Positions 28,116 to 62,823 of a stretch of DNA of 64,000 nucleotides are shown here, piece by piece. This stretch comes from Giesbergeria sp. (lineage in GTDB: Bacteria > Pseudomonadota > Gammaproteobacteria > Burkholderiales > Burkholderiaceae_C): NCBI GenBank assembly GCA_017985015.1, contig JAGNYI010000016.1:1-64000 (forward strand), in the 5' to 3' direction. Every line of letters begins with the position of its first letter. The stretch's first letter is position 1. Position numbers and translations under genes: made by a program. The notes beneath the pieces are model-generated. The model made no database searches. It was given only the letters and a program-made list of their open reading frames with translations, and was not told the DNA's origin.

Positions 28116-28760
28116 TCACGCCGCACCCCCCAGGAACAGGTCCAGCGCCTGCTCCGTAAGCTCGTCCAGGGAAAGCGCGCCGCGCGGATTGAACCACTGC
28201 ACCGACCAATTGAGCGCGCCCAAGATGAATAGTCGCGCCGTGACCGGGTCGGCCTTGAGCGCACCCTGGCGGTGCAGGGCTTCGAGCGCCGGGGCCCAGC
28301 AGGCCTCGTAGGCGGCCTTGATGGCGGCGATCTCCTGGCGCTGGACGCTGCTGAGCGAGCGCCATTCGTAGAGCATCACCGGGATGAAATCGGCGTGCGG
28401 CCCGTGCAGCACCTCGAAATGCTGGCGCACCAGGCTGCGCAGTTGCTCGCGCGGACTGGCCCCCTCGGACAGCTTGGTCAGCGCGTCGCACTGGCTTTGG
28501 TAAGCAAATGCCATGCCCTCTTGCACCACAACGTAGAGCAAGGCGTTCTTGCTGTCGAAATGGTAAAACGGCGAGCCGCTGCGCATGCCGGCGGCAGCCG
28601 CAATGTCGCGCGTGCTGGTGCCATCAAACCCCTTGGCGCGAAACAGGCGCGCCGCACCCTCGATCAATTGGCGGCGGCGGTTGCCTTCATCCAGATCCGA
28701 GGGCAGCTTGGGCGGCCGGCCGCGCTTTCGAGGCGTGTCAGGTACAGGAGATTTCGGCAT
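28116..28760 (-). CDS. TetR-family regulator, probable fatty-acid/CoA catabolism repressor
   Basis: This 214-aa protein has an N-terminal TetR helix-turn-helix (LIEGAARLFRAKGFDGTSTR, DIAAAAGMRSGSPFYHFDSK) preceded by a basic AT-hook-like segment RKRGRPPK. The C-terminal ligand domain (RSLVRQHFEVLHGPHADFIP) resembles TetR_C regulators of acyl-CoA metabolism. A palindrome of the form 7-bp half-site, 4-nt spacer, 7-bp half-site lies about 30 nt upstream. Matching sites occur before livH and before the thiolase at 39905, suggesting that it controls the neighbouring acyl-CoA genes. Confidence 0.85.
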   Translation of the reverse strand: MPKSPVPDTPRKRGRPPKLPSDLDEGNRRRQLIEGAARLFRAKGFDGTSTRDIAAAAGMRSGSPFYHFDSKNALLYVVVQEGMAFAYQSQCDALTKLSEGASPREQLRSLVRQHFEVLHGPHADFIPVMLYEWRSLSSVQRQEIAAIKAAYEACWAPALEALHRQGALKADPVTARLFILGALNWSVQWFNPRGALSLDELTEQALDLFLGGAA

Positions 28761-28790
28761 GCATGGAACTTAGCAAAGCCGAAAAATTTA

Positions 28791-28808
28791 AGCAAGCAAT
28801 TGCTTTGT
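28791..28808. promoter_or_regulatory. candidate TetR operator, site 1
   Basis: AGCAAGC-AATT-GCTTTGT, containing the perfect 12-bp palindrome AAGCAATTGCTT, ends about 30 nt before the TetR start. It shares its AAGC-N4-GCTT centre and half-site with sites at 32331 and 39842, so autoregulation is likely. Confidence 0.6.
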
Positions 28809-28861
28809 GAAAATACCTTGCGCTGGACCCGCGCAGGCCGCAGGGCGGGCGCTACCGCTAT

Positions 28862-29377
28862 TTAGGCCACTGCAGCGACGGCATCTACGGGGCGCGGCTT
28901 GGACGCGGCACGCACGGTCGTACCCACGTCAATTTCCCCCGAAAGCTGCCCGCCCTCTTCCACCACCAGCTTGCCGTAGCGAATCTTGCCGCTGACCTTT
29001 CCGGTACTGAAGATGACAAGCTTCTGGCGCACGGTGAGCGAACCGTCAAAACTGCCGCGGATCTCGGCAATGTCGATTTCGGCCGAGCCGCGAAACGCCC
29101 CTTCCTCGGAAATCTGGATCACGCGCGAATCCATGGTGGCTTCTACTGTGCCTTCCACCACCAGCGTGTCGCAATCCGTGATCTCCACGCCCTTGAGCTT
29201 GATGTTGGGCCCGACGGTGAGCTTGCTGCCAGCGCTGCCCGGCGCTGTGGTCGATGCACTGGCGGGCGTCGTCACGTTCTGGGCCGGCTGCGTCGGCATC
29301 GTGGCGGGGGCGCTGGCATGGCGCGGCTTGAAAGTTTCGGGTTCACGTTTGCCAAAGAACGGGGTTTGCACGGCCAT
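28862..29377 (-). CDS. bactofilin (polymer-forming cytoskeletal protein)
   Basis: This 171-aa protein has a disordered Ala/Thr/Pro-rich N-terminus (about residues 1-55) followed by the right-handed beta-helix bactofilin domain: TVGPNIKLKGVEITDCDTLV, VEGTVEATMDSRVIQISEEG, GSAEIDIAEIRGSFDGSLTV. Bactofilins self-assemble into filaments near the membrane and scaffold cell-shape or envelope enzymes. I chose the ATG at 29377 (MAVQTPFF); an upstream in-frame extension lacks family resemblance. No M23 peptidase gene, a frequent partner, is adjacent. Confidence 0.9.
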   Translation of the reverse strand: MAVQTPFFGKREPETFKPRHASAPATMPTQPAQNVTTPASASTTAPGSAGSKLTVGPNIKLKGVEITDCDTLVVEGTVEATMDSRVIQISEEGAFRGSAEIDIAEIRGSFDGSLTVRQKLVIFSTGKVSGKIRYGKLVVEEGGQLSGEIDVGTTVRAASKPRPVDAVAAVA

Positions 29378-29534
29378 CGGACCTCCTGATTGAAGAAGAG
29401 ACGATCGTAGGAAGGCGCGCGGTCTGCACAGCGCAGTCTTGCGCAAGTTGCGTAAGCAAACGGTTCAATGCTTGCATGCGCTTGCATCCTTTGCGTCGAC
29501 TCACACCGCGTTACTGCATGTGCATCCCCTCGAC

Positions 29535-30032
29535 TCAAGAGACGATGTAAGCGCCCGCTCCGGTAGCCATCAAAGTCCCATCGGGACCAAAAAATTCCAT
29601 CCGGGTGCTGGCCACGCGCGAGCCCAGGCGCAGCACCTTGGCATGCAATTCGAAATGGTCACCGATGCCGGGGCGCAGGTAGTCCACGCGCAGGTCGATG
29701 GTGCCCAGGCGCGTGAAGCGGTGCAGGCGCTGATCGAGCGGCTCGTCCATGTGCTTGGCGCCCACGGCGGCCATGACGGCCAGGCCTCCCATGGCGTCGA
29801 GCCCGGCGCTGATCGCGCCGCCATGGACCCGGTTGTAGGCGTAGTGGCCCACCAGCTCAGGGCGCATGTCGATGCGCCCGATGGCACCATCGGCATACAG
29901 CGACAGCACCTTGAGGCCGAGGACGCGGTTGAACACGATCTTTTCTTCAAAAATCTCTTTCAGCGCATCCACAAATTCAGGCTCCAGTAGAGGAGCAGAT
30001 CCGGGCTGCAGCAAGGTCTTGGGTGGGGTCAT
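29535..30032 (-). CDS. hot-dog thioesterase, YigI-like
   Basis: This 165-aa PaaI/YigI-type thioesterase has the hot-dog core RPELVGHYAYNRVHGGAISA, in which the HGG loop precedes the long helix, and LGTIDLRVDYLRPGIGDHFE. Escherichia coli YigI hydrolyses medium- and long-chain acyl-CoA. I chose the ATG at 30032 (MTPPKTLLQPG). It lies downstream of selD on the same strand with a 95-nt gap; a functional link to selenium is not evident. Confidence 0.85.
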   Translation of the reverse strand: MTPPKTLLQPGSAPLLEPEFVDALKEIFEEKIVFNRVLGLKVLSLYADGAIGRIDMRPELVGHYAYNRVHGGAISAGLDAMGGLAVMAAVGAKHMDEPLDQRLHRFTRLGTIDLRVDYLRPGIGDHFELHAKVLRLGSRVASTRMEFFGPDGTLMATGAGAYIVS

Positions 30033-30127
30033 GGGGTTTCCAGGGGTGCGCGCTGTTGCGCTTTGAGATGAAGTGTGGGCCTCGTTGCGCGCGCGGGCGT
30101 TCGAATCCGTGCAGGAGAAATGAAAAT

Positions 30128-31207
30128 TCAGCGCAGCGTCAACCGCCCGCGCCCACCCGGGACAATTTCCCCAATCTGGGTTGCAGCGCCAAAGCCGTGG
30201 CGCGCGAACACCGCGAGCACCTCGGCCACTGCGCTCGGTGCACACGACACCAACAGGCCGCCGCTGGTCTGCGGGTCGGTCAGCAAGGCGCGGTCGGTGG
30301 CAGAAAAATCCGGCGGCAGATCGACTTGCGCGCCATAGCCTTCCCAGTTGCGCCCAGAAGCCCCCGTGACGGCGCCCTGCGCGGCCAGCTCGCGCACGCC
30401 GGGCAGCAGCGGCACCCTGGCCCAGTCGATGGCGACGTCGGCCTGGGCACCGCGTGCCATCTCCAGCGCGTGGCCGGCCAGGCCGAAACCGGTCACGTCT
30501 GTCAGGGCGTGTACGCCGGCCAGCGCTGCAAGATCGGGGCCGGGGGTATTGAGCTTCGTGGTCACCGCGATCATCTGCTTGTAGCCCGCCTCCGGCAGCT
30601 GACCCTTTTTGAGCGCGGCCGACATCACCCCCACGCCCAGCGGTTTGCCAAGAATGAGCTGGTCGCCCACCTGCGCATCCGAATTGCGTTTGATTTTCTT
30701 CGGGTGCACCACGCCAAGAGCCACCAGACCGTAAATCGCCTCGACCGAATCGATGGTATGGCCACCGGCAATGGGAATTCCCGCCTCCCGGCAGACCGAT
30801 TCACCGCCTTCGAGAATCTTGCCGATCACCTCGGTGGACAGCACGCTGATCGGCATGCCCACCAGCGCCAGCGCAAAAATCGGCGTGCCGCCCATGGCAT
30901 AGACATCGCTGATCGCATTCGTTGCGGCGATGCGGCCAAACTGGTAGGGGTCGTCGACGATGGGCATGAAGAAATCGGTGGTTGCAATCACCGCAATGTC
31001 GTCGGTCAGCTGGTACACCGCCGCGTCGTCTGCGGTGTCCAGCCCCACCAGCAGCTGCGGCGGCACCGGCATCTTGTTGGTGTTTCTCAATATCTCGCTC
31101 AGCACCCCCGGCGCAATCTTGCAGCCGCAGCCGCCGCCATGCGAAAGCGAGGTCAGGCGGGGGCCGGCGGCAGCCGGCGCAGGGGCAGTCAGGGCATCAG
31201 CATTCAT
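30128..31207 (-). CDS. selD: selenide, water dikinase
   Basis: This 359-aa SelD makes selenophosphate from selenide and ATP, the selenium donor for selenocysteine and for 2-selenouridine in tRNA. The active-site segment is HGGGCGCK, with C27 and K30 matching Escherichia coli C17 and K20. A normal cysteine, not selenocysteine, is used. Downstream blocks include TTDFFMPIVDDPYQFGRIAA and LTDPQTSGGLLVSC. No selA, selB, selC or mnmH is in this window, so its consumer must be elsewhere. Confidence 0.95.
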   Translation of the reverse strand: MNADALTAPAPAAAGPRLTSLSHGGGCGCKIAPGVLSEILRNTNKMPVPPQLLVGLDTADDAAVYQLTDDIAVIATTDFFMPIVDDPYQFGRIAATNAISDVYAMGGTPIFALALVGMPISVLSTEVIGKILEGGESVCREAGIPIAGGHTIDSVEAIYGLVALGVVHPKKIKRNSDAQVGDQLILGKPLGVGVMSAALKKGQLPEAGYKQMIAVTTKLNTPGPDLAALAGVHALTDVTGFGLAGHALEMARGAQADVAIDWARVPLLPGVRELAAQGAVTGASGRNWEGYGAQVDLPPDFSATDRALLTDPQTSGGLLVSCAPSAVAEVLAVFARHGFGAATQIGEIVPGGRGRLTLR

Positions 31208-31400
31208 GGCGAATTTTCTTCAATAGTGGGTTCGGTATGGATACGGCCCCGTGAAACCTCACGTTTGCTCAGGCCCAGCCCGTCGAAGGGCTTCAATTTC
31301 ATGGCCGGCTTCGCGAGCGCGAGCGCATCGCGTGGGCCACAGTGGGCGTGCGCGGTGGTGGTTGCAGCGCAGTGCGCCCTTTGTATTGCAAATACGCTAC

Positions 31401-31458
31401 CAAATATATAGCTGCTAACTCTTTATTCTAAAGCGCTAGAGCCCATTTTCATCTGAAA
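31401..31458 (+). repeat. AAGCGCTAGAG intergenic repeat, copy C
   Basis: This copy reads TATATAGCTGCTAACTCTTT then ATTCTAAAGCGCTAGAGCCC. It overlaps the 3' end of the enoyl-CoA hydratase gene on the opposite strand and supplies its last codons and TAA stop. Confidence 0.8.
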
Positions 31459-32250
31459 TTCTCCGTGCCTGCCGTCGCCCTGGACAAAGCGCGCCGCGCC
31501 GCGCAGGGCTTCGGCCAGGCAGGCCCTTCCACCCTGCCATTCCTGCAGCAGCGCCTCGGTGTTGGCCAGTCCGTCCTGAGCGAGCGCGCTGGCGCGGTCG
31601 GCCCGCAGCGTGCGCTGCGGAAACGTGGCCAAGGTGCGCGCCAGTTCCATGGCAGCCGCCAGCGCTTCGCCCGGCGGCACGACGCGGGTGCACAGGCCGA
31701 AGCCCAGGGCCTCGGCCGCATCGACCTTGCGCCCCGTCAGAATCAGATCAAGCGCGCGCGCCAGGCCAATGAGGCGCGGCAGGCGCACCGTGCCGCCGTC
31801 GATCAGTGGCACGCCAAAGCGGCGGCAATAGACGCCCATATAGGCGTCGGCTTCCATGACCCGCAGGTCGCACCACAGCGCGAGCTCCATGCCACCCGCC
31901 ACCGCAGCGCCGCTGATCGCGGCAATCACGGGTTTGGAGAGCTGCAGCCGGCTGGGCCCCATGGGGCCTTCGGGCTGCGCCTGGCAGGCGTCGAAATCGA
32001 GCGTCTGCGCCAGCGTCTCGGGGTCGGTTCCCTGCGCCGCCAGCGCCGCTCCGGCTTGCAGATCCCAACCCGCGCAGAAGTGTCCGCCAGCACCGTGAAA
32101 CACCGCGACGTCGGCCCCATCGTCCTGCTCGAAAGCGACGAACGCGGCATGCAGAGCCTGCGCCGTGGCGCGGTCCACCGCGTTGCGAACTTTGGGTCGG
32201 TTCAGTGTCACCAGTGTGACGCGTTGGAATTTTTCGGTATGGACGTTCAT
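31423..32250 (-). CDS. enoyl-CoA hydratase/isomerase (crotonase) family protein
   Basis: This 275-aa crotonase acts on CoA esters through an oxyanion hole. The signature is AAISGAAVAGGMELALWCDL, and the substrate loop GAGGHFCAGWDLQAG carries the first backbone donor. The expected catalytic-glutamate region reads RRFGVPLIDGGTVRLPRLIG, where Asp occupies the position of the second glutamate in hydratases, so the reaction may differ. I chose the ATG at 32250. The C-terminal GSSALE and stop come from repeat copy C. It is divergent from livH across a 116-nt gap with a palindromic site. Confidence 0.87.
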   Translation of the reverse strand: MNVHTEKFQRVTLVTLNRPKVRNAVDRATAQALHAAFVAFEQDDGADVAVFHGAGGHFCAGWDLQAGAALAAQGTDPETLAQTLDFDACQAQPEGPMGPSRLQLSKPVIAAISGAAVAGGMELALWCDLRVMEADAYMGVYCRRFGVPLIDGGTVRLPRLIGLARALDLILTGRKVDAAEALGFGLCTRVVPPGEALAAAMELARTLATFPQRTLRADRASALAQDGLANTEALLQEWQGGRACLAEALRGAARFVQGDGRHGEFQMKMGSSALE

Positions 32251-32330
32251 GGCTTTGTGCACGACATTTCGGCAGGGCTTGGGGTTAGCCCCCGCTTGCC
32301 GGGCAGGCAACGTGCAGGCACATTATTTGA

Positions 32331-32348
32331 GCAAAGCACACGCTTTGC
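32331..32348. promoter_or_regulatory. candidate TetR operator, site 2
   Basis: GCAAAGC-ACAC-GCTTTGC is a perfect 7-bp inverted repeat with a 4-nt spacer, 19 nt before the livH start. It sits between the divergent hydratase gene and livH, so it could control both. Confidence 0.65.
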
Positions 32349-32366
32349 AAAATCACTGGAGACTTC

Positions 32367-33242
32367 GTGCAGTTCCTGCAATTGTTGGTCAGCGGCATCT
32401 CACAGGGCTGCATCTACGGATTAATCGCACTCGGTTTCGTTCTTATTTACAAGGCGACCGAAGCCGTGAGCTTTGCCCAAGGCGAACTGATGATGCTCGG
32501 CGCCTTCTGTGGCCTGGCACTGATGACCGTGCTGGGCTTCCCCTTCTGGCTGGCGGTGCCGGCGACGATTGTTGCCATGGGGTTGTTTGGCGTGGTGCTT
32601 GAGCGCATCGTCATCCGCCCCATTCTCGGCCAACCGCTGTTTTCGATCGTGATGCTCACCATCGGCGTGGGCTACGTACTGCGCGGTCTGGTCACCATGA
32701 TTCCAGGCATCGGTACCGACACACACAGCTTGCCCGTACCGTACAAGGACATGCCGCTGCGCGTAGGCGAGCTGGTGCTGAGCGCCGAGCAGGTGGTGGT
32801 GATCGGCGCCACCGCCGTGCTGTGCCTGCTGCTGTATGCCATGTTCCGGTTCAGCAAATTGGGCGTGGCCATGCAGGCGGCGTCGCAAAACCAGCTGGCG
32901 GCGTACTACATGGGCATTCCCGTGCAGCGCCTCAACGGTCTGGCCTGGGGCCTCGCAGCGGCAGTGGCCGCAGTGGCCGGCTTGCTGCTCGCGCCCATCA
33001 CCTTTGTGCACGCCAACATGGGGTTCATCGGCCTCAAGGCCTTTCCGGCGGCCGTGGTGGGCGGCTTTGGCAGCCTGCCCGGCGCCATCGTCGGCGGACT
33101 GGTCATCGGCATGGTGGAGTCGCTCTCGGGCTTTTACCTGCCCGAAGGCGTCAAGGACGTGGCGCCCTACCTCGTGGTGCTGATCATGCTGATGGTCCGA
33201 CCCAACGGCCTGTTTGGCGAGCGCCTGAGCAAGAAAGTATAG
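32367..33242 (+). CDS. livH: branched-chain-type ABC permease LivH
   Basis: This 291-aa inner-membrane permease of the LivH family starts at a GTG (32367) with a GGAGA ribosome-binding site 5 nt upstream (MQFLQLLVSGISQGCIYGLI). Signature blocks are GFVLIYKATEAVSFAQGELM and AFPAAVVGGFGSLPGAIVGG, the latter near the ATPase-docking region. About eight helices are visible. It opens the livHMGF-ligase-livK run. The ligase in the operon suggests the substrate is an organic acid rather than an amino acid. Confidence 0.92.
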   Translation: MQFLQLLVSGISQGCIYGLIALGFVLIYKATEAVSFAQGELMMLGAFCGLALMTVLGFPFWLAVPATIVAMGLFGVVLERIVIRPILGQPLFSIVMLTIGVGYVLRGLVTMIPGIGTDTHSLPVPYKDMPLRVGELVLSAEQVVVIGATAVLCLLLYAMFRFSKLGVAMQAASQNQLAAYYMGIPVQRLNGLAWGLAAAVAAVAGLLLAPITFVHANMGFIGLKAFPAAVVGGFGSLPGAIVGGLVIGMVESLSGFYLPEGVKDVAPYLVVLIMLMVRPNGLFGERLSKKV

Positions 33243-33248
33243 GAATGT

Positions 33249-33356
33249 CACTCCCCCGATGCGCCTTCGGCGCCTCCCCCTCAAGGGGGCGATACCAGTG
33301 GCCCGGCAAAGCCGGTTCCACGGTAACCCCCACAGGGGGCAGCGCGCCCCGCAGGC
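33249..33356 (+). repeat. GC-rich hairpin repeat (family 2), copy 1
   Basis: This repeat separates livH and livM. It contains three stacked hairpins: a GCGC stem (33261-33273), CCCCC-TCAA-GGGGG (33276-33289) and CCGGC-AAA-GCCGG (33303-33315). Related copies lie at 34470, 36299 and 41111. Confidence 0.7.
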
Positions 33357-33392
33357 GCCATGGTTCCAGCGCAGGAAGGGAGCCCTACTGAT

Positions 33393-34469
33393 ATGCGCTT
33401 TATCTTTAAGACAAGCTACGCGCAGGACCTGCGGCTGGCCAAGCACGGCGGGCATCTATTCTGGTACGGACTGCTGGGCCTCGCGCTGCTGGCGGCCCCC
33501 TGGTTCACCCCGGAATACTGGCTGGCGCAACTCACCTTTGTACTCATCTATGCCATCGTCGGCCTGGGGCTGATGCTGCTGGCTGGCTACACGGGCTTGT
33601 TCTCGCTCGGGCACGCGGCCTTTCTGGGCGTGGGCGCGTACACGCAGGCGGTGCTCACCGGCATGGGCTGGCCGTTTCTGCTCTCGCTGGCCTGTGCGGC
33701 AGGCATTTCGGCAGCAGTGGGTGTCGTCGTGGGCCTGCCTGCCATGCGGGTCAAGGGCATTTACCTGGGCATGGCGACGCTGGCTTTCGGCTTCATTGTT
33801 GAAGAAGGTTTTGCGCGCTGGGAGAGCGTCACCGGCGGCAACTCCGGCAAGGCGGTGGCGATGCCCGAGATCTTCGGCGTATCCCTCGATTCCGCCATGG
33901 CTTTCTATTTTGTGTGCCTGGCGATCACCGTGGCCTGCACGCTGGTCATCCTCAACCTGCTGCGCTCACCCACCGGCCGGGCCTTTGTCGCCATTCGTGA
34001 TTCCGAGATTTCGGCGCAAAGCATGGGCATTCATCTGGCGTATTACAAAACGCTTTCGTTCGCGCTCTCGGCCGCTTTTGCCGGGATTGGCGGTGCGCTG
34101 TATGCACACAAGCTGCAGTTCATCTCGCCAGACCAGTTCAGCATTCTTCAGTCCATCGATCTGTTGCTGATGATCGTCATCGGCGGCCTTGGCTCGGTGC
34201 ATGGCGCTTTTCTGGGGGCGATTTTTCTGATCTCCATGCCGCAGCTCATTGCGCTCGGCAAAGACTGGCTGCCCGATTCCGTCGGCCAGTCGCCCGGCCT
34301 GCAGGGTCTGGTGTACGGCGTGGTGCTGATCGGTTTCGTGCTGTTCGAGCCCATGGGGCTGTATGGCCGCTGGCTCAAGGTGCGCACCTGGCTGCAGATG
34401 TTCCCGTTCTACCGCCAGGGCATGTTCAAGCGCCAGAAGTCTTTTCAGAAATCGGACCGACTCAGATGA
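33393..34469 (+). CDS. livM: branched-chain-type ABC permease LivM
   Basis: This 358-aa permease partners LivH. I chose the ATG at 33393 (MRFIFKTSYAQDLRLAKHGG), preceded by AAGGGAG. Family blocks include GLGLMLLAGYTGLFSLGHAA, KGIYLGMATLAFGFIVEEGF and LMIVIGGLGSVHGAFLGAIF. A basic C-terminal tail (RQGMFKRQKSFQKSDRLR) is longer than in Escherichia coli LivM, and its TGA abuts a family-2 repeat. Confidence 0.93.
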   Translation: MRFIFKTSYAQDLRLAKHGGHLFWYGLLGLALLAAPWFTPEYWLAQLTFVLIYAIVGLGLMLLAGYTGLFSLGHAAFLGVGAYTQAVLTGMGWPFLLSLACAAGISAAVGVVVGLPAMRVKGIYLGMATLAFGFIVEEGFARWESVTGGNSGKAVAMPEIFGVSLDSAMAFYFVCLAITVACTLVILNLLRSPTGRAFVAIRDSEISAQSMGIHLAYYKTLSFALSAAFAGIGGALYAHKLQFISPDQFSILQSIDLLLMIVIGGLGSVHGAFLGAIFLISMPQLIALGKDWLPDSVGQSPGLQGLVYGVVLIGFVLFEPMGLYGRWLKVRTWLQMFPFYRQGMFKRQKSFQKSDRLR

Positions 34470-34594
34470 AGCATCCCCCTGTGTCGCTTCGCTCCTTCCC
34501 CCTTCTCTCGCTGCGCTGCGCTTCGCGGGAAGGGGGACGACGCCAGCGCGGCGGGGCGGCCCTTGCGCGGCGTCCGCTGGTTGGGGGAGCGCCA
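34470..34594 (+). repeat. GC-rich hairpin repeat (family 2), copy 2
   Basis: This repeat lies between livM and livG. It shares with copy 3 the start GAAGCAYCCCCCTG and the later block CCAGCGCGGCGGGGCGGCCC, with a TTCCCCCTT / AAGGGGGA stem between them. It fills most of the 172-nt gap in the operon. Confidence 0.75.
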
Positions 34595-34641
34595 GTTTTT
34601 GCAGTGGCGCTCGGCTGCGTGCCGCGCAGAGGAACACCCCG

Positions 34642-35481
34642 ATGACCACGGACATCCTGCTCAGTGCCCGCAACCTCAGCGTCCGCTTTGGCGGCGTGCT
34701 GGCCGTCAATGACGTGAGCTTTGACGTGCGCCGGGGCGAGGTATTCACGCTGATCGGCCCCAACGGCGCTGGCAAGACCACGGTGTTCAACCTGATCAGC
34801 CGCATCTACACGCCTACCACCGGCCACATCGAATGGGCGGGGTCTGATGCTCCCATCGTGCTGACGCAGCAGGCGCCCTACACCGTCGCGGGGCTTGGCA
34901 TTGCGCGCACATTCCAAAACATCGAGTTGTTCGAGCACGCGAGCGTGCTGCACAACCTGCTGATCGGCCGCCACACCCGCCGCGAAACCGGTCTGTGGGC
35001 CGACATGCTGTTTACCGGCCGCGTGCGGCGCGCCGAGGTGCGGGCGCGCGAGAAGGCCGAGGAGATCATTGATTTTCTTGACCTGCAGCACTACCGTGAC
35101 ACCTTGGTGGCGGGCCTGCCCTATGGCGTGCGCAAGGTGGTGGAGCTGGGCCGCGCGCTGTGCACCGAGCCGCAGCTGCTGCTGCTCGACGAACCCTCGT
35201 CGGGCCTGAACGTCGAGGAAACCGAAGACATGGCCTTCTGGATCCAGGACATCCAGCAAGAGCTGGGCATCACCGTGCTGATGGTGGAGCACGATATGAC
35301 GCTGGTCTCCAAGGTATCCGACCGGGTGCTGGCCATGAACCAGGGTGAGCTCGTTGCCCTGGGCACGCCGCGCGAGGTGCAAGCGCATCCGGGCGTCATC
35401 GAGGCCTATCTGGGCAGCATTGACGAAGTGACCAGCCTGCGCCGCCCGGCCGGCACTGCTCCGCTGCGGAGCGCCGCATGA
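34642..35481 (+). CDS. livG: branched-chain-type ABC ATPase LivG
   Basis: This 279-aa ATPase has Walker A GPNGAGKTT at residues 39-47 and Walker B LLLLDEPSSGLN. Its signature is degenerate: LPYGVRKVVELGRAL in place of LSxGxQ, a usual feature of LivG. The start at 34642 follows AGAGGAA. Its stop overlaps livF (ATGATGA at 35478-35484), indicating coupling. It works with LivF as the heterodimeric motor of the LivHM importer. Confidence 0.93.
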   Translation: MTTDILLSARNLSVRFGGVLAVNDVSFDVRRGEVFTLIGPNGAGKTTVFNLISRIYTPTTGHIEWAGSDAPIVLTQQAPYTVAGLGIARTFQNIELFEHASVLHNLLIGRHTRRETGLWADMLFTGRVRRAEVRAREKAEEIIDFLDLQHYRDTLVAGLPYGVRKVVELGRALCTEPQLLLLDEPSSGLNVEETEDMAFWIQDIQQELGITVLMVEHDMTLVSKVSDRVLAMNQGELVALGTPREVQAHPGVIEAYLGSIDEVTSLRRPAGTAPLRSAA

Positions 35482-36296
35482 TGATCGCCCCCACTCCCCT
35501 GTCGAGCAAGCTGCCCGGCACAGCGCCTGCGCCATTGCTGCGGCTGCAGAACGTCGAGAGCGCCTACGGCCCGATCAAGGCGATTCGTGGTGTCAGCCTC
35601 AAGGTCCAGCCCGGAGAAATTGCGGCCGTTTTGGGCAGCAATGGCGCCGGCAAGACGACGATCCTCAAAACCATCTCGGGCATCCTCGACCCACGCCGTG
35701 GCATCGTGGAGTTTGATGGGGCAGACATCACCGCCCACGACCCGGCCGCCATCGTGCGCCGCGGCATGGTGCACGTCCCCGAAGGGCGCGAAGTGTTTGC
35801 GCTGCTGCCGGTGCGCGAAAACCTGCTGATGGGCGCCTACACCCGCAGCGACAGCGATGCGGTGGCGCGCGACCTGGAGCTGGTCTACAACTACTTTCCG
35901 ATCCTGCGCGAACGCTGCCACCAGGAGGCTGGCCTGCTTTCGGGCGGGCAGCAGCAGATGCTGGCGATCTCGCGTGCGCTGATGGCCGCGCCGAAGTTGA
36001 TCCTGCTCGACGAGCCCAGCCTGGGGCTCTCACCGCGCCTGACCAAGGAAATCTTCGAGATCGTGGTGCGCATCAACCGCGAGCGCGGCACCACCATCTT
36101 GCTGGTGGAGCAGAACGCCAACATGGCGCTCAATGCGGCGGACTTTGGCTATGTGCTGGAAAACGGCCGCATCGTCATGGAGGACACCTGCGCCAATCTG
36201 CGCGAGAAGGACGACATCAAGGAGTTCTACCTCGGCATGAAGGACGAAGGCGTGCGCGGCGAGCGGCGCTGGAAGAAGAAGAAAACATGGAGATGA
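35478..36296 (+). CDS. livF: branched-chain-type ABC ATPase LivF
   Basis: This 272-aa ATPase starts at either of two adjacent ATGs (35478 or 35481). Walker A GSNGAGKTT is at residues 53-61, the signature LSGGQQQMLAISRAL is normal, and Walker B reads LILLDEPSLGLSP. An N-terminal extension of about 20 residues and a basic C-terminal tail (ERRWKKKKTWR) exceed the Escherichia coli length. It pairs with LivG. Confidence 0.93.
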   Translation: MMIAPTPLSSKLPGTAPAPLLRLQNVESAYGPIKAIRGVSLKVQPGEIAAVLGSNGAGKTTILKTISGILDPRRGIVEFDGADITAHDPAAIVRRGMVHVPEGREVFALLPVRENLLMGAYTRSDSDAVARDLELVYNYFPILRERCHQEAGLLSGGQQQMLAISRALMAAPKLILLDEPSLGLSPRLTKEIFEIVVRINRERGTTILLVEQNANMALNAADFGYVLENGRIVMEDTCANLREKDDIKEFYLGMKDEGVRGERRWKKKKTWR

Positions 36297-36298
36297 AA

Positions 36299-36412
36299 TG
36301 AAGCACCCCCTGCGTCGCCTTCGGCGCCTTCCCCCTCTCTCGGCTCGCTGCGCGAGTCGGGAGGGGGACACCCCCAGCGCGGCGGGGCGGCCCTTGCGCG
36401 GGGGTGCTGGTA
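36299..36412 (+). repeat. GC-rich hairpin repeat (family 2), copy 3
   Basis: This repeat lies between livF and the acyl-CoA ligase gene. It resembles copy 2 closely in its first 40 bases and in the CCAGCGCGGCGGGGCGGCCC block, with CGGCTCGCTGCGCGAGTCGG forming an internal stem-loop. Confidence 0.75.
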
Positions 36413-36430
36413 TTGGCCGCGCCTGTTTTA

Positions 36431-36450
36431 TGCACCTTGGTCAAGGTGCA
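36431..36450. promoter_or_regulatory. 9-bp inverted repeat upstream of acyl-CoA ligase
   Basis: TGCACCTTG-GT-CAAGGTGCA is a perfect 9-bp inverted repeat, 19 nt before the ligase ATG. In DNA it could be an operator; in RNA it would be a strong hairpin close to the ribosome-binding region, able to limit translation. Its sequence differs from the proposed TetR sites. Confidence 0.55.
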
Positions 36451-36469
36451 GCGACTCGGGTAGTTTGCA

Positions 36470-38326
36470 ATGTCTAATCTTTGGGACCTTGACCACATTC
36501 GTCCGGCTGGCAAAGACGTGCTGGCGGGCGACACCGTGCCCGCGATGTTCTGGAACGCGGTGGCCGAGCGCGGGCCCAAGGTGTGGATGCGCCAGAAGCA
36601 CATGGGCATCTGGAAGAGCTGGACCTGGAACCAGACCGCCGATGCGGTGCGGGAAATTTCTGGCGGGCTGATGGCGCTGGGTCTCGCCCCGGGTGAATGC
36701 GCGTCCATCCTGTCCAACACCACCATTGAATGGGTGCTGTGCGACCTGGCCGTGCTGGCCTGCGGCGGTGTCTCCAATGGCATCTACCCCACCGACGCGC
36801 CCAGCCAGGTGCAGTACCTGTGCGAAGACTCGGCCACACGCCTGCTGTTTGTCGAAAACGACGAACAGCTCGACAAGGCCCTGGAAGTGCGTGAGCGCTT
36901 GCCGCTCTTGCGCAAGATCGTGGTGATCGACATGGAAGGCCTGCGCGGGCTGGATGACGCCGACGTCATTGGCCTGAACGCCCTGCGCGAACTCGGCCGC
37001 GGCTACCTGCAGCAGCACGCGGGCGAACTCGAGCGCCGCTCCGCAGCCTGCCGGCCAGGCGATCTGGCGATTCTGGTCTATACCTCGGGCACCACCGGCA
37101 AACCCAAGGGCGCGATGCACACGCACGGCGCCATCACCTACACCCTGCGCGGCTACAACACCTTGATTGCGCGCGATGAGAGCGACGAGGCCATGTGCTT
37201 CCTGCCGCTGTGCCACATTGCCGAGCGCATGGGCGGTGAGTATTTTTCGCTCTACACGGGAAGCAAGCTCAATTTCGTCGAAAACCCCGACACCGTGCCC
37301 GAGAACGTACGCGAAATTGCGCCCACGGTGTTCACCGCCGTGCCACGGGTGTGGGAAAAGTTCTATTCGGGCGTGATGATTTCCCTGAAGGAATCCACGC
37401 GCATGCAGCAGCTTGCCTATGCCTGGGCCATTGGCGTGGGCACGTGCATTGCCGATCGCGTTCTGGCGGGCGAAGCGGTCAGCGCCAGTCTGAAATTGCG
37501 CTTCTATCTGGCGCGTTGGCTGGCGCTGGACAACGTGCGCAAGCTCATCGGCATCCACAAGGCACGCTTTCTGGTGACCGGAGCGGCGCCGATTTCGCCA
37601 GAACTCGTCAAGTGGTACCTGGCGCTCGGCGTGCCCATGCTCGAAGTCTGGGGTATGACCGAGACCTGCGGCGCCGCCACCGGCGTGCCAGCCAGCCGCA
37701 TGAAGCCCGGCTCCATCGGCCCGGCGGCGCAGTTCAACGAGGTGCGCATTGCCGAGGGGACCGGGGAAATTCTGGTGCGCGGCCCCAACGTGTTCAAGGG
37801 CTACCTGAACCAGCCCGAAAAAACCGCCGAGACCATCGATGCCGAGGGCTGGCTGCACACTGGCGACGTGGGCACGATGGATGCCGAAGGGTATCTGCGC
37901 ATCACCGACCGCATGAAGGACATCATCATTACGGCGGGCGGAAAGAACGTGACCCCGAGCGAGCTGGAAAACGAGCTCAAATTCAGCCCCTATGTCACCG
38001 ACGCCGTGGTGATTGGCGACAAGCGCCCCTACCTCACCGCCATCGTGATGATCGACCAGGAAAACGTCGAAAAATACGCGCAGGACCACGATGTTCCGTT
38101 TTCCAACTACGCCAGCCTCACGCGCACCAGCGAAGTCCAGGCGCTGATCCAGGCCGAGCTGGAGCGGGTCAACGCCAAGTTCGCACGCGTTGAGCAGATC
38201 AAGAAGTTCTTCCTCCTCGACACCCAGCTCACCGCCGAGGACGAAGAGCTCACGCCCACCATGAAGCTCAAGCGCAAGCTGGTGGAGGCGAAGTACGCCG
38301 AGCAGATCGAGGCCATGTATCGATGA
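36470..38326 (+). CDS. long-chain acyl-CoA synthetase (AMP-forming ligase)
   Basis: This 618-aa ANL-superfamily ligase activates a carboxylic acid to its CoA ester. The P-loop YTSGTTGKPKG is near residue 203, the adenylate motif WGMTETCG near 395, and the hinge block HTGDVGTMDAEGYLRITDRM with KDIIITAGGKNVTPSELEN follows. It resembles FadD15-type long-chain ligases, which carry an extra insert. It lies between livF and the livK-like gene, so a substrate imported by the Liv system is probably activated here. Chain specificity is not readable. Confidence 0.9.
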   Translation: MSNLWDLDHIRPAGKDVLAGDTVPAMFWNAVAERGPKVWMRQKHMGIWKSWTWNQTADAVREISGGLMALGLAPGECASILSNTTIEWVLCDLAVLACGGVSNGIYPTDAPSQVQYLCEDSATRLLFVENDEQLDKALEVRERLPLLRKIVVIDMEGLRGLDDADVIGLNALRELGRGYLQQHAGELERRSAACRPGDLAILVYTSGTTGKPKGAMHTHGAITYTLRGYNTLIARDESDEAMCFLPLCHIAERMGGEYFSLYTGSKLNFVENPDTVPENVREIAPTVFTAVPRVWEKFYSGVMISLKESTRMQQLAYAWAIGVGTCIADRVLAGEAVSASLKLRFYLARWLALDNVRKLIGIHKARFLVTGAAPISPELVKWYLALGVPMLEVWGMTETCGAATGVPASRMKPGSIGPAAQFNEVRIAEGTGEILVRGPNVFKGYLNQPEKTAETIDAEGWLHTGDVGTMDAEGYLRITDRMKDIIITAGGKNVTPSELENELKFSPYVTDAVVIGDKRPYLTAIVMIDQENVEKYAQDHDVPFSNYASLTRTSEVQALIQAELERVNAKFARVEQIKKFFLLDTQLTAEDEELTPTMKLKRKLVEAKYAEQIEAMYR

Positions 38327-38420
38327 ACGGCGTGCGGGCCAGGCCAGGGAGCCTAGGGAAATTGCCCGTGCCCGCAACGCCGCATCGTTCTATAACCATT
38401 CCACTCAAGGAGACAACGCC

Positions 38421-39587
38421 ATGAAACTTCACCACCTCGCCGCCCTGGCATTTGCCGTGGGCACCTCGGGCGCCGCCATGGCGCAAGCCCAGCAAGGGGT
38501 CACCAAGGACGCCATCACGCTCGGCTCGATTCAGGATTTGTCGGGTCCGCTGGCGGGCTTTGGCAAACAGGTGCGCCTGGGCATGATGCTGCGCGTGGAC
38601 GAAGCCAACGAACAGGGGGGTGTCGACGGCCGCAAGCTTGAACTCAAGGTGGAAGACTCGGGCTACGACCCCAAGCGCGCCGTGCTGGCCGCGCAAAAGC
38701 TCGTGAACCAGGACAAGATTTTCATGATGGTGGGCCACATCGGCACGGCGCAGAACATGGCTGCCATGCCAGTGCAGTTTGCCAAGAACGTCATCAACTT
38801 CTTCCCGGTGACGGCTGCGCGCGAGATGTACGAGCCCTTCCACCGCCTGAAGTACTCATTTGCCGCCACCTACTACGACCAGATTCGCCTGGCGCTGCCC
38901 AAGCTGATGAAGGAAAAAGGCGCGAAGAAGGTCTGCACCATCTATCAGGACGACGAGTTCGGTCTGGAAGTGGAGCGCGGCGGTGAGGCTGCCCTCAAGA
39001 CCATGGGCATGGAATACACCGAGAAAACGTCGTTCAAGCGCGGCGCAACCGATTTTTCCTCGCAAGTGGCCAAGATGAAGGCTGCGGGCTGCGACTTCGT
39101 CGTGCTGGGCACCATCATCCGCGAGACCATCGGCACCATCGGCGAATCGCGCAAGACCGGCTTCAGCCCGACTTTCCTGGGCTCGAGCGCTGCCTACACC
39201 GACCTGATCCACAAGCTGGGCGGCAAAGCCATGGACGGCCTCTACGCCACCATGACGGTGCAGCACCCCTACCTGGATGAGGCTTCGCAGCCCATTCGTT
39301 TCTGGGCCACCAAGTACAAAACCAAGTTCAACGAAGATCCGACGGTGTTCTCCGTCTATGGCTACGACATCATCGACGCCTTCATTCGCGCGGCACAAAA
39401 GGCGGGCAAAAACCTGACCACCGACAGCTTCATCAAGGCCATGGACACCATGGTGATCCCGCCTGACATCTTCGGCAGCCCCGAATCCACCTTCAGCCCC
39501 ACGAAGCGCCTGGGCAACGACCTCTCGCGCATCTCGCAAATTCAGGACGGAAAGTGGAAGGTGGTGTCGGACTACATCAAGCCGTAA
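38421..39587 (+). CDS. LivK-type periplasmic binding protein
   Basis: This 388-aa receptor of the type-1 periplasmic fold has a signal peptide MKLHHLAALAFAVGTSGAAM then AQAQ. The core starts AITLGSIQDLSGPLAGFGKQ, and KVCTIYQDDEFGLEVERG shows the family's second-domain hinge. It lacks the Tyr/Gly pattern typical of amino-acid binding LivJ/K proteins, as far as I can judge, and is closer to receptors for aromatic or alicyclic acids. It completes the importer encoded just upstream, with a terminator after it. Confidence 0.88.
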   Translation: MKLHHLAALAFAVGTSGAAMAQAQQGVTKDAITLGSIQDLSGPLAGFGKQVRLGMMLRVDEANEQGGVDGRKLELKVEDSGYDPKRAVLAAQKLVNQDKIFMMVGHIGTAQNMAAMPVQFAKNVINFFPVTAAREMYEPFHRLKYSFAATYYDQIRLALPKLMKEKGAKKVCTIYQDDEFGLEVERGGEAALKTMGMEYTEKTSFKRGATDFSSQVAKMKAAGCDFVVLGTIIRETIGTIGESRKTGFSPTFLGSSAAYTDLIHKLGGKAMDGLYATMTVQHPYLDEASQPIRFWATKYKTKFNEDPTVFSVYGYDIIDAFIRAAQKAGKNLTTDSFIKAMDTMVIPPDIFGSPESTFSPTKRLGNDLSRISQIQDGKWKVVSDYIKP

Positions 39588-39612
39588 AGGCAGTGCTTGC
39601 ACCTGCAGAAAG

Positions 39613-39635
39613 CCGCCCTTCGGGGCGGTTTTTTT
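39613..39635 (+). terminator. rho-independent terminator after livK-like gene
   Basis: CCGCCC-TTCG-GGGCGG is followed by seven T residues, with the very stable UUCG tetraloop, 25 nt past the stop codon. It ends the liv/ligase operon. Confidence 0.92.
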
Positions 39636-39714
39636 CTGCCGCGCGTTGGTGACAACCGTCCGACACGGCGGCGCCAGACGCCGTGTCGCAGGATGCAGGC
39701 GGTACAAAGAAGCG

Positions 39715-39787
39715 ATATTTTGCTTCTTAATTGATAGCTTCTTGCGCTTTATGGATAAGCGTTAGAGGCCAATCTTCTTCATTTTTT
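39715..39787 (+). repeat. AAGCGCTAGAG intergenic repeat, copy D
   Basis: This copy reads TTGATAGCTTCTTGCGCTTT then ATGGATAAGCGTTAGAGGCC, with one change (AAGCGT) in the core. It is flanked by T-rich ends. Confidence 0.8.
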
Positions 39788-39841
39788 GTGTCTGTTCGGG
39801 CCTGGTTGCAATCCGTATCCACCCATTGAGCAAGCATTTAC

Positions 39842-39859
39842 ACAAAGCGTCCGCTCTGT
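39842..39859. promoter_or_regulatory. candidate TetR operator, site 3
   Basis: ACAAAGC-GTCC-GCTCTGT has 6 of 7 half-site positions symmetric. Its left half equals the reverse complement of the right half of site 1. It lies 46 nt before the thiolase start. Confidence 0.5.
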
Positions 39860-39904
39860 AAAAATCTATACTGATTCAATCAGTGCAACAGGAGACCCCG
39901 CCCC

Positions 39905-41110
39905 ATGACCGAAGCCTATGTATTCGAAGCCCTGCGCACCCCGCGCGGCAAAGGCAAAAAAGACGGCAGCCTGCACGAAGTCAAGCCCATCACGCTGCTG
40001 ACTGGCCTGCTCACTGAGCTGCAGGCGCGCCAGGGTTTTGACACGGCCGCAGTGGACGACGTTGTCATGGGCATCGTCTCGCCCGTGGGTGAACAAGGAT
40101 CTGTGCTGCCCAAGGTGGCGGCCATCAAGGCGGGGTGGGCTTTCACCACGGCGGGCGTGCAGATCAACCGCTTCTGCGCCTCGGGCCTGGAGGCCGTGAA
40201 CCTGGCGGCGCAGAAGGTGCGTTCGGGCTGGGAAGACCTGGTAGTGGCTGGCGGCGTCGAGAGCATGAGCCGCGTGCCCATTGGCGCCGACGGCGGCGCC
40301 TGGGCGCAAGACCCGGAGACGAACTCGGCCACGCTGTTCGTGCCACAAGGCATTGGCGCCGACCTGATTGCCACACTCGATGGCTTCACGCGCGAAGATG
40401 TGGACGCGTTCGCGCTCGAATCCCAGCGCCGCGCCACCGCTGCACGCGCAGCCGGCTACTTCAAGCAATCGGTGGTGCCGGTGCGCGACGCCCTGGGCCT
40501 GGTGATTCTGGAAGAAGACGAATTCATCAAACCCCAGACCACGATGGAGGCGCTCGCCGGCCTCAAGCCCTCGTTTGCGCAGCTCGGCGCCATGGGGTTT
40601 GACGGGGTAGCGCTGCAACGCTACCCGCAAGTAGAGCGAATCCACCATGTGCACCACGCGGGCAATGCGTCGGGCATCGTCGATGGCGCAGCAGCCGTGC
40701 TCATCGGCAACGAAGCAGCAGCCAAGTCGCAGCACCTCACGCCGCGTGCACGCATCGTCGCCACCGCCGTCAGCGGCGCCGACCCGACCATCATGCTCAC
40801 CGGCCCGGTGCCGGCGACAAAGAAGGCGCTGGCGCGCGCCGGCATGACGATTGATCAGATCGATTTGTTCGAAGTGAACGAAGCCTTTGCCGCCGTGCCC
40901 ATGCGCTTCATGCGCGAACTCGGCGTGCCGCACGAGAAGGTCAACGTCAACGGCGGCGCCATCGCGCTGGGCCACCCGCTGGGCGCCACCGGCGCCATGC
41001 TGCTGGGCACGCTGGTCGATGAACTGCACCGGCGCCAGTTGCGCTTCGGCCTGATCACGCTGTGCGTGGGCGGCGGCATGGGGATTGCCACCATCGTGGA
41101 AAGGGTTTGA
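39905..41110 (+). CDS. acetyl-CoA acyltransferase (thiolase)
   Basis: This 401-aa thiolase cleaves 3-ketoacyl-CoA to acetyl-CoA and a shortened acyl-CoA. The nucleophile is C91 ([13 protein letters not shown]), with H357 (GHPLGATGA) and C387 (LCVGGGMG) completing the triad. The middle segment is somewhat compressed compared with FadA. It is followed 140 nt later by the trifunctional gene on the same strand, so the two form a fadAB-like pair for beta-oxidation. Confidence 0.92.
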
Positions 41111-41193: not shown

Positions 41194-41250
41194 TTAGTGC
41201 AACGGTTCGCTTCTCGAAAACACAGTCATTCATCGGATAGAGACACCACC

Positions 41251-57865: not shown

Positions 57866-59059
57866 TTAAACCGCTTCGAAGATGCCGGCGGCGCCTTGGC
57901 CTGTACCTACGCACATGGTCACCATCCCGTACTTCAGCTTGTGCCGCTTGAGCGCATGCACCACCGTCGCCGCACGAATCGCCCCGGTAGCCCCCAGCGG
58001 ATGCCCCAGCGCAATCGCGCCACCCATCGGGTTGACCGTGGCCGGGTCCAGGCCCAGGGTGCGCACCACGGCAAGCGACTGGGCGGCAAAGGCTTCGTTC
58101 AGCTCGTACCAGCCAATGTCTTCGTGCTTGAGGCCGGCGTAGCGCAGCGCGGCGGGAATCGCCTCGATCGGGCCGATGCCCATGAGCTCGGGCGGCACGC
58201 CGCGTGCGGCAAAGCTGACAAAGCGCGCCAGCGGGCTCAAGCCAAACTGCTTGACGGCCTTCTCGCTGGCCAGAATCAAGGCGCCCGCGCCGTCACTGGT
58301 CTGCGAGCTGTTGCCGGCCGTAACGCTGCCCCGGGCGGCAAATACGGGGCGGAGTTTGCCCAAGGCTTCGAGCGTGGTGTCGGGGCGCGGGCCTTCGTCC
58401 AGGCTCACGGTGCGCTTCTTGATGATCACTTCGCCGGTGGCCAGGTCGGGCGTGCGCTCGGTGATCTCAAACGGCGTGATTTCGTCGGTGAACTCGCCGG
58501 CCTGCTGGGCCTTGACCGCGCGCAGGTGCGATTCCAGCGCAAAAGCGTCCTGGTCTTCGCGCGACACCTTCCATTGCTGGGCCACCTTTTCGGCCGTCAG
58601 GCCCATGCCATAGGCGATGCCGACGTTCTCGTCGCGGGCAAACACTTCTGGGTTGAACGAGGGCTTGTTGCCGCCCATGGGCACCATACTCATCGATTCG
58701 GCGCCACCGGCGATCAGCACGTCGGCCTGGCCCACGCGAATGCGGTCGGCTGCCATCTGGATGGCGCTCACGCCCGAGGCACAAAAGCGGTTGACCGTAA
58801 TGCCGCCCACGGGGTGGTCAAAGGCCAGGCCCATGGCAATGCGGGCCATGTTCATGCCCTGCTCGCCCTCGGGGAACGAGCAGCCAATGATGGAATCTTC
58901 AATGGCCTTCGGGTCCAGCGTCGGCACCTGCAGCATGGCGCTGCGAATGGCGGCGACCAGCAGGTCGTCGGGGCGGGTGTTCTTGAAGTAGCCACGGCCC
59001 GAGCGGCCAATGGGCATGCGCGTGGCGGCAACGATGTAGGCGTCTTGAACTTGTTTCAT
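57866..59059 (-). CDS. fadA: acetyl-CoA C-acyltransferase (thiolase)
   Basis: This 397-aa thiolase has nucleophile C93 (VNRFCASGVSAIQ), H353 (GHPLGATGA) and C383 (TMCVGTGQGAAG). The full-length central region aligns with FadA/PcaF-type thiolases. It lies in a minus-strand cluster with the trifunctional enzyme and acyl-CoA dehydrogenase, so it probably performs the last beta-oxidation step there. It differs clearly from the thiolase at 39905. Confidence 0.94.
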   Translation of the reverse strand: MKQVQDAYIVAATRMPIGRSGRGYFKNTRPDDLLVAAIRSAMLQVPTLDPKAIEDSIIGCSFPEGEQGMNMARIAMGLAFDHPVGGITVNRFCASGVSAIQMAADRIRVGQADVLIAGGAESMSMVPMGGNKPSFNPEVFARDENVGIAYGMGLTAEKVAQQWKVSREDQDAFALESHLRAVKAQQAGEFTDEITPFEITERTPDLATGEVIIKKRTVSLDEGPRPDTTLEALGKLRPVFAARGSVTAGNSSQTSDGAGALILASEKAVKQFGLSPLARFVSFAARGVPPELMGIGPIEAIPAALRYAGLKHEDIGWYELNEAFAAQSLAVVRTLGLDPATVNPMGGAIALGHPLGATGAIRAATVVHALKRHKLKYGMVTMCVGTGQGAAGIFEAV

Positions 59060-59123
59060 GGGGAGAACCTCAGGGTACGGGCTGCGACTTCGGAGCGGCA
59101 GCGCCTGTCAATGTGGATAGGAA

Positions 59124-59834: not shown

Positions 59835-59860
59835 GTGTCTCTCCAGGGGCGCGGCGGCGT

Positions 59861-62260: not shown

Positions 62261-62343
62261 TGATTGTTCTCCGTGGAGCCCGCAGAAGCGGGGCCTCCGT
62301 TGTCAGACACCCCGCGACTGGCGCCGGGCAGACAGGGGTTTGA

Positions 62344-62781: not shown

Positions 62782-62823
62782 GGGCGCTCCTGGGTCAAAA
62801 AGATTGAAATCCGCTCCACTTGC

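What the first reader, a model, noticed from the sequence alone, without database searches (positions are those of the whole stretch)
28791..39859. Three matching palindromes suggest one TetR regulon for uptake, activation and beta-oxidation
AGCAAGC-AATT-GCTTTGT lies before the TetR gene, GCAAAGC-ACAC-GCTTTGC before livH (and the divergent hydratase), and ACAAAGC-GTCC-GCTCTGT before the thiolase. All share a 7-4-7 layout, an AAGC-N4-GCT(T/C) centre and consensus half-site ACAAAGC. Each lies 19-46 nt from a start codon. The simplest reading is a TetR repressor that senses an acyl-CoA and controls its own gene, the liv/ligase importer and the thiolase/trifunctional pair.
Basis: partly seen in the sequence, partly recalled or inferred. 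Interest (0 to 1): 0.7.

Follow-up and report, generated by a model that had tools for sequence, protein, structure and literature searches.

The report
AtuR-like repressor of acid catabolism genes
Three matching DNA palindromes in this bacterium are very probably the switches of one TetR-type repressor that turns on uptake and breakdown of some fatty-acid-like food; it is a further example of a known kind of switch, sitting beside a second, separate fatty-acid switch.

Summary
The three palindromes lie at the stated coordinates. A motif model built only from upstream regions of 29 TetR orthologs in other genomes picks out exactly these three sites in the window (31.2, 22.2, 16.5 bits; next 6.2) and lists no others in the 3.37-Mb genome (150 of 1622 candidates scored). 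The operator is conserved before the TetR gene (29 of 29 orthologs; 79 of 80 named loci), before thiolase-FadB (25 of 31 genomes with a close TetR, 0 of 8 without), and less often before livH (7 of 35; 0 of 19 regions without TetR). In six genomes the TetR is divergent from livH with a core site between them. One TetR regulon is thus well supported by sequence; binding is untested and acyl-CoA sensing is inference. I first took it for FadP and rejected that: another TetR on the same contig heads a fad operon with a different operator. Instead the motif agrees with the published AtuR operator, and the nearest solved structure is pfiT, a homologue of PA2885. Verdict: a new AtuR-type member.

The parts
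28116..28760 (-). TetR-family repressor P0001 (214 aa; TetR_N + TetR_C_24)
   Evidence: Pfam; 50 of 150 family genomes have a homolog at E<=1e-20; nearest solved structures pfiT, AibR, PfmR, KstR2, FadR
28785..28815 (.). Operator 1 (core 28791-28808), before the TetR gene: autoregulation
   Evidence: 31.2 bits; equivalent site upstream of 29 of 29 fetched orthologs and in 79 of 80 named loci
32326..32353 (.). Operator 2 (core 32331-32348), between divergent hydratase and livH
   Evidence: 16.5 bits, E 0.0008 in the window, 0.04 genome-wide; conserved in 4 of 5 named loci with livH in view; livH site in 7 of 35 close-TetR genomes
39836..39865 (.). Operator 3 (core 39842-39859), before thiolase-FadB
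   Evidence: 22.2 bits; site before the orthologous thiolase in 25 of 31 close-TetR genomes (window included), 0 of 8 without TetR
31423..32250 (-). Enoyl-CoA hydratase/crotonase-family gene, divergent from livH
   Evidence: ECH_1, PRK08259 over its cut-off
32367..33242 (+). livH-type permease, first gene of the importer unit
   Evidence: BPD_transp_2
33393..36296 (+). livM, livG, livF (33393-34469, 34642-35481, 35478-36296; the first two starts are my choice inside longer frames)
36470..38326 (+). AMP-forming acyl-CoA ligase (FadD-like)
   Evidence: AMP-binding + AMP-binding_C_3
38421..39587 (+). Periplasmic substrate-binding protein of the LIV-type importer
   Evidence: Peripla_BP_6
39613..39635 (+). 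Hairpin CCGCCC-TTCG-GGGCGG followed by seven T: terminator-like, between the importer unit and operator 3
   Evidence: read directly from the sequence; not listed by the scan
39905..41110 (+). Thiolase (acetyl-CoA C-acetyltransferase, PRK08242 over its cut-off)
41197..43404 (+). FadB/FadJ-type enoyl-CoA hydratase / 3-hydroxyacyl-CoA dehydrogenase (start may be 41251)
   Evidence: Pfam; best NCBIfam models FadJ/FadB, below their cut-offs
39837..39865 (+). Promoter-like pair TTTACA-17-AAAAAT (TG before second hexamer) that encloses operator 3
   Evidence: consensus match only; 8 found in 16 kb, shuffles mean 2.3
32322..32351 (-). Promoter-like pair toward the hydratase that encloses operator 2
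   Evidence: consensus match only

Best explanation
The three palindromes are operators of the one TetR repressor encoded at 28116-28760. It is an AtuR/RdmA-like member of the acyl-CoA-sensing branch of TetR proteins. Without substrate a dimer sits on about 32 bp over each promoter and blocks transcription of its own gene, of the divergent hydratase and livHMGF-ligase-SBP units, and of the thiolase-FadB unit. When the acid is imported and turned into its CoA ester by the co-regulated ligase, the ester (or a nearby intermediate) binds the repressor, which lets go, so uptake, activation and beta-oxidation rise together. Shown here: the sites, their conservation, their tie to the presence of the TetR, their overlap with promoter-like hexamers at two of three sites, and agreement of the motif with the published AtuR operator. 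Inferred: binding, repression, the effector and its chemistry.
For: Held-out model finds exactly the three sites in window and genome (pattern search). Operator before 29 of 29 fetched orthologs, unseeded word AAGC-N4-GCTT in 27 of 29, 79 of 80 named loci (partly the same genomes). Thiolase operator in 25/31 close-TetR genomes, 3/4 with distant TetR, 0/8 without; livH 7/35, 2/6, 0/19 regions from 18 genomes (the window is in the 31 and the 35). 35 of the 36 genomes with a site at E<=0.02 have the TetR, which 50 of 150 have (29 of them supplied the model, so only their second sites are independent). All 34 non-TetR sites outside the window's genome were annotated: 24 lie before thiolase or ACAD-thiolase, 4 before livH, 6 elsewhere. 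In six genomes the TetR is divergent from livH with a core site between, p 0.001 each. The AtuR operator scores 17.7 bits in this model against a training mean of 18.0; 0 of 20000 random 13-mers reach it. Fold neighbours include AibR with isovaleryl-CoA and FadR with stearoyl-CoA.
Against: The livH site is the weakest and is missing in 28 of 35 genomes with a close TetR; two of the seven (G015, G146) share one site with a divergent thiolase. Six of 31 close-TetR genomes lack a thiolase site within 320 nt; in two of them (G072, G095) a site lies before an acyl-CoA dehydrogenase placed ahead of thiolase, in the other four (G029, G035, G085, G097) none was found at E<=0.02. Fifteen of 50 TetR-bearing genomes show no site at E<=0.02 (stricter filters). 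The window's own sites differ from the AtuR 13-mer at 3, 3 and 4 bases; of 3000 random 34-mers 23 come within 3 and 145 more within 4. No binding, expression or ligand data.
Confidence: 0.88

Rival explanations
1. P0001 is FadP, the TetR already described for fatty-acid degradation in Burkholderiales including Comamonadaceae, and the three sites are part of that known regulon.
For: FadP is a TetR with fatty-acid targets reported for Comamonadaceae (PMC5343134 passages); thiolase-FadB would fit.
Against: Another TetR (TetR_C_13) at G000:C6:64640-65329 sits directly before a long acyl-CoA dehydrogenase, a 799-aa FadB and a thiolase. Ralstonia fadP likewise has an acyl-CoA dehydrogenase as its next locus tag and represses an adjacent beta-oxidation operon (PMC12543098 passages); C. 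necator A0460-A0462 are dehydrogenase, 3-hydroxyacyl-CoA dehydrogenase and thiolase (PMC4870535 passages, which do not say what A0459 is). The palindrome before this TetR, AAAGAACGATCGTTCTAT, occurs at 8 places with at most 2 mismatches, its own included, three of them beside ETF-beta, ECH-3HCDH and ETF-QO/SDR genes, and at 3 mismatches before an acyl-CoA dehydrogenase. Weak point: others lie beside a lipase, an AsnC regulator, TrpE (284 nt off) or no gene found, and the total of hits up to 3 mismatches is no higher than the control's (33 against 37). That TetR is in 138 of 150 family genomes (E<=1e-35), P0001 in 50 (E<=1e-20).
Confidence: 0.08
2. The sites belong to one regulon, but the liv-type importer is not part of it in this organism; operator 2 serves only the divergent hydratase or is a decayed relic.
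For: Operator 2 is the weakest, most relatives lack it, and the promoter-like match there points toward the hydratase.
Against: It is 18 nt from the livH start, is kept in 4 of 5 named loci with livH in view (L239-L242; not L317), and a divergent TetR-livH arrangement with a core site occurs in six other genomes.
Confidence: 0.15
3. P0001 is LiuQ, the TetR reported for branched-chain amino acid breakdown in some betaproteobacteria, and the importer carries leucine, isoleucine or valine.
For: LiuQ is a TetR with small regulons in 14 genomes, unique to betaproteobacteria (PMC5343134 passages); the importer is of the LIV type; AibR, a structural neighbour, senses isovaleryl-CoA (titles).
Against: No branched-chain amino acid breakdown gene is among the targets found; the acyl-CoA dehydrogenase of two relatives scored below every NCBIfam cut-off and no isovaleryl-CoA dehydrogenase model was among its matches at E<=1e-40; only three sites were listed in the genome. 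The LiuQ sequence and motif were not in hand.
Confidence: 0.06
4. Chance palindromes in A/T-rich promoters.
For: The bare core AAGC-N4-GCTY occurs at three other places in the window.
Against: Held-out model, conservation and the dependence on TetR presence.
Confidence: 0.02

Closest known systems
AtuR (P. aeruginosa/P. citronellolis) and RdmA (P. nitroreducens), TetR repressors of atu/dmg clusters
   Same: Operator AGCAAGCGCTTGG / CCAAGCGCTTGCT fits the P0001 motif at 17.7 bits; nearest solved structure by sequence and fold is pfiT, of which PA2885 is a homologue at 78% (PMC3873459 passage; that PA2885 is AtuR is recalled); a repressor of genes that break down CoA-activated acids.
   Different: Here single operators before importer-ligase, beta-oxidation and TetR genes, and no geranyl-CoA carboxylase gene among the genes scanned beside them; AtuR uses two copies 40 bp apart. 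About 35% identity to pfiT. AtuR and RdmA sequences were not compared.
FadP of Burkholderiales (Kazakov 2009, not read; PMC5343134 and PMC12543098, passages)
   Same: TetR regulator with beta-oxidation targets in the same bacterial group.
   Different: A different TetR of this genome has the fad-operon layout and another operator.
AibR, KstR2, Bacillus FadR
   Same: Same TetR fold branch; AibR and B. subtilis FadR were solved with acyl-CoA (titles).
   Different: 24-27% identity in the fold alignment; other targets (recalled).

Membership tests
AtuR/RdmA-like TetR repressors | Binds the operator AGCAAGCGCTTGG | tested here: inconclusive
   Motif agreement: 17.7 bits against a training mean of 18.0, 0 of 20000 random 13-mers as good; 2 of 29 ortholog sites hold it exactly, 3 with one mismatch, 18 with two. 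But the window's own three sites differ from it at 3, 3 and 4 of 13 bases. Binding not tested.
AtuR/RdmA-like TetR repressors | Closest kin by sequence and fold | tested here: met
   pfiT is the best PDB hit by sequence (E 1e-36; 1.3e-46 with the profile) and by fold. AtuR and RdmA themselves were not compared; the link is PA2885.
AtuR/RdmA-like TetR repressors | Controls an atu-type cluster (geranyl-CoA carboxylase and others) | not tested
   None among the genes scanned around the three sites; the genome was not searched for atu genes.
FadP | TetR gene beside an acyl-CoA dehydrogenase/fad operon | tested here: not met
   P0001 has a bactofilin gene on one side and no frame over 155 aa between 26640 and 28115 on the other; another TetR of the genome meets the feature.
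FadP | Sequence identity with Ralstonia FadP and its published motif | not testable with these tools
   Kazakov 2009 not held; no named Ralstonia chromosome was brought in.
LiuQ | Sites before branched-chain amino acid breakdown genes | tested here: inconclusive
   Only the three sites were listed genome-wide; LiuQ sequence and motif not in hand.
TetR family | TetR_N helix-turn-helix and TetR-like ligand domain | tested here: met
   PF00440 3.3e-14, PF17932 3.9e-25; all-helical model, pLDDT 84.5

The most novel reading that the evidence does not exclude
Two TetR repressors split fatty-acid breakdown in Comamonadaceae: a near-universal FadP-like one for common fatty acids, and this patchy AtuR-like one for a special acid (branched, unsaturated or terpenoid, perhaps a DSF-like signal) that enters through a LIV-type importer wrongly named for amino acids, and whose CoA ester, made by the co-regulated ligase, is the inducer.
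Probability: 0.3. Interest if true: 0.6.

Novelty: new member of a known kind. Interest (0 to 1): 0.42.

Why it matters
It gives a precise operator and a small target list for a regulator whose relatives are spread through Comamonadaceae, and ties a LIV-type importer with a neighbouring acyl-CoA ligase to beta-oxidation rather than to amino acids. If the AtuR kinship holds in function, it offers an acyl-CoA-responsive switch and a direct way to find the importer's substrate: whatever compound lifts P0001 off these sites.

Tried and rejected
FadP as the identity of P0001: held at first on literature, dropped when the own genome was found to carry a second TetR with the fad-operon layout and another operator. 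Layout and motif argue this; no FadP sequence was compared. The pattern used for that second operator has as many total hits as its reversed control at up to 3 mismatches (17 and 16 against 18 and 19). I lean only on the 8 places at 0-2 mismatches and one dehydrogenase at 3; the call does not show how many control hits lie at 0-2.

The unseeded count was made to remove the seeding worry.

A loose IUPAC search of the genome with 3 mismatches gave 614 and 566 hits (control 286 and 304) and is useless alone.

Second sites that are not before thiolase or livH: 6 of 34 (L104, L109, L112, L113, L115, L129). L113 (same genus) lies in an alpha/beta-hydrolase frame, L115 beside a short-chain dehydrogenase, L112 in a frame with Rieske domains. 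G093 has a site at E 0.0138 without TetR; it lies inside an acyl-CoA dehydrogenase frame and looks like chance. The named locus L317 has one site (12.6 in the matrix) tied to none of the genes looked for.

TetR-less genomes with the same thiolase-FadB genes were looked at for another shared palindrome; none was evident. Order-level homologs of P0001 show core-like sites beside some TetR genes (for example L329, L337, L338) but were not tested further.

Literature listings that named no such regulon: TetR with LIV-type importer, Comamonas, LiuQ, AtuR with regulon and beta-oxidation (zero papers). The library holds only open-licence papers, so this is no proof of absence.
Full report
What was checked. 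The bare core occurs at three other places in the window too, so the question was whether more than the core is shared.

The operator, learned elsewhere. TetR homologs were sought in 150 genomes of the same family (50 have one at E<=1e-20). All 29 fetched orthologs (the best-scoring ones besides the window's own) have a site within 250 nt upstream. An unseeded count of all 4-gap-4 words puts AAGC-N4-GCTT first, in 27 of 29 regions, against at most 5 in three shuffled sets. A sequence-only model from these 29 sites in both orientations, which never saw the window, finds the three sites at 31.2, 22.2 and 16.5 bits and nothing else above 6.2 bits in 64 kb. Genome-wide it lists only the three (150 of 1622 candidates scored); a pattern search agrees.

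Conservation at the targets. In 320-nt upstream regions, with a matrix from the same 29 sites and dinucleotide shuffles, the orthologous thiolase gene has a site (p<=0.01) in 25 of 31 genomes with a close TetR, 3 of 4 with a distant TetR and 0 of 8 without; one further thiolase region was too short to score. livH has one in 7 of 35, 2 of 6 and 0 of 19 regions (18 genomes), and in the one genome with only a weak TetR homolog there is none. The classes close, distant, weak and none were set by me from the identities. The window itself is one of the 31 and one of the 35; the thiolase site of G096 is shared with its TetR and was in the training set; in G015 and G146 one site between divergent thiolase and livH counts for both; the livH region of G083 was only 95 nt. 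In the 80 named loci that one search kept of 557 (mostly Comamonadaceae names such as Simplicispira, Acidovorax, Curvibacter, Hydrogenophaga, Ramlibacter), a scan gave 84 sites: 79 before the TetR (one each in 79 of 80 loci, the last cut at a contig end), 4 before livH and 1 elsewhere; shuffled sequence gave none at scores of 10 or more. Of 5 loci with livH in view, 4 have the livH site, in the hydratase-livH or thioesterase-livH gap.

Gene logic. Of the 34 second sites found in other genomes, 24 lie before thiolase-FadB or an acyl-CoA dehydrogenase ahead of it, 4 before livH and 6 elsewhere. In many of these loci the dehydrogenase gene stands divergent to thiolase across the site. In six genomes the TetR gene itself is divergent from livH (G005, G056, G062, G087, G090, G091) with a core site in the gap, p 0.001 each; G079, where the two genes lie apart, has none (p 0.099), and of 19 TetR-less regions the two best had p 0.013 and 0.027. 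So the tie between this TetR and the importer is not a quirk of the window. In the window a hairpin with a T run at 39613-39635 (read) separates the importer unit from thiolase, which would explain why thiolase needs its own operator. Promoter-like hexamers enclose operators 2 (toward the hydratase) and 3, as expected of a repressor.

Not FadP. The obvious known candidate was FadP (passages of PMC5343134; of PMC12543098). But the genome has 14 TetR_N genes, and one at C6:64640-65329, just beyond the window's right end, precedes a dehydrogenase-FadB-thiolase operon. Ralstonia fadP has an acyl-CoA dehydrogenase as the next locus tag, and C. necator A0460-A0462 have the same three enzymes (PMC4870535 passages). 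The palindrome before that TetR, AAAGAACGATCGTTCTAT, occurs at 8 places with at most 2 mismatches, beside ETF-beta, ECH-3HCDH and ETF-QO/SDR genes among others, also beside a lipase, an AsnC regulator and TrpE, and is unlike the P0001 operator. The TetR is in 138 of 150 family genomes at E<=1e-35, P0001 in 50 at E<=1e-20. The name FadP for it is an inference from layout and targets.

AtuR-like instead. The passages of PMC9973270 give the AtuR operator as AGCAAGCGCTTGG and CCAAGCGCTTGCT, report gel shifts of RdmA on a promoter with the same repeats, and propose that the fatty acid signal DSF releases it. This 13-mer scores 17.7 bits in the P0001 model (training mean 18.0; 0 of 20000 random 13-mers reach it) and occurs exactly in 2 of 29 ortholog sites; the window's three sites differ from it by 3, 3 and 4 bases, where 23 of 3000 random 34-mers come within 3 and 145 more within 4. 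The nearest solved structure is pfiT by sequence and by fold, of which PA2885 is a homologue (passage); that PA2885 is AtuR is recalled. Further fold neighbours are AibR with isovaleryl-CoA, KstR2 and B. subtilis FadR with stearoyl-CoA (titles), on a model of pLDDT 84.5. [quoted passage not shown] its authors leave the TetR's role open.

Verdict. One regulon under one TetR: well supported by sequence, not yet by experiment. The mechanism is the ordinary one for this branch.

Noticed in passing
window 57866-63999 (minus strand) and G000:C6:64640-65329: A second fatty-acid operon (thiolase PRK09052, 799-aa FadB, long acyl-CoA dehydrogenase) headed by a TetR_C_13 regulator just outside the window, with its own palindrome AAAGAACGATCGTTCTAT that also occurs at some fad/etf genes.
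   Followed up: partly
G000 C10:1739, C24:7997, C64:119081, C68:28064, C72:21945: A dispersed repeat of about 40 nt (like TTCTAAATCAAACGATTACTTTGTCGGCTTCGCTTGCC) at five places; at C10 it lies near the meeting ends of two convergent frames.
   Followed up: no
for example G141:C67, G085:C11, G063:C14, G123:C180: The P0001-type TetR and the FadP-like TetR lie on one contig 7-28 kb apart in at least 16 relatives (36 kb here): a conserved fatty-acid island.
   Followed up: no
L239-L242 against window 28116-32250: TetR, bactofilin and thioesterase keep their order up to livH in these four relatives, with the hydratase in three and SelD seen in one; bactofilin and SelD have no evident tie to the regulon.
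   Followed up: no
L102 5874 and 6041: G063 carries two operators before the same thiolase gene, 167 nt apart.
   Followed up: no
29 TetR-upstream sites: The half-site next to the TetR gene reads GCTTGC in most of them (C at its sixth base in 23 of 29) while the far one is RCMAAGC; the fixed asymmetry may mean that the near half doubles as part of a -35 element.
   Followed up: no
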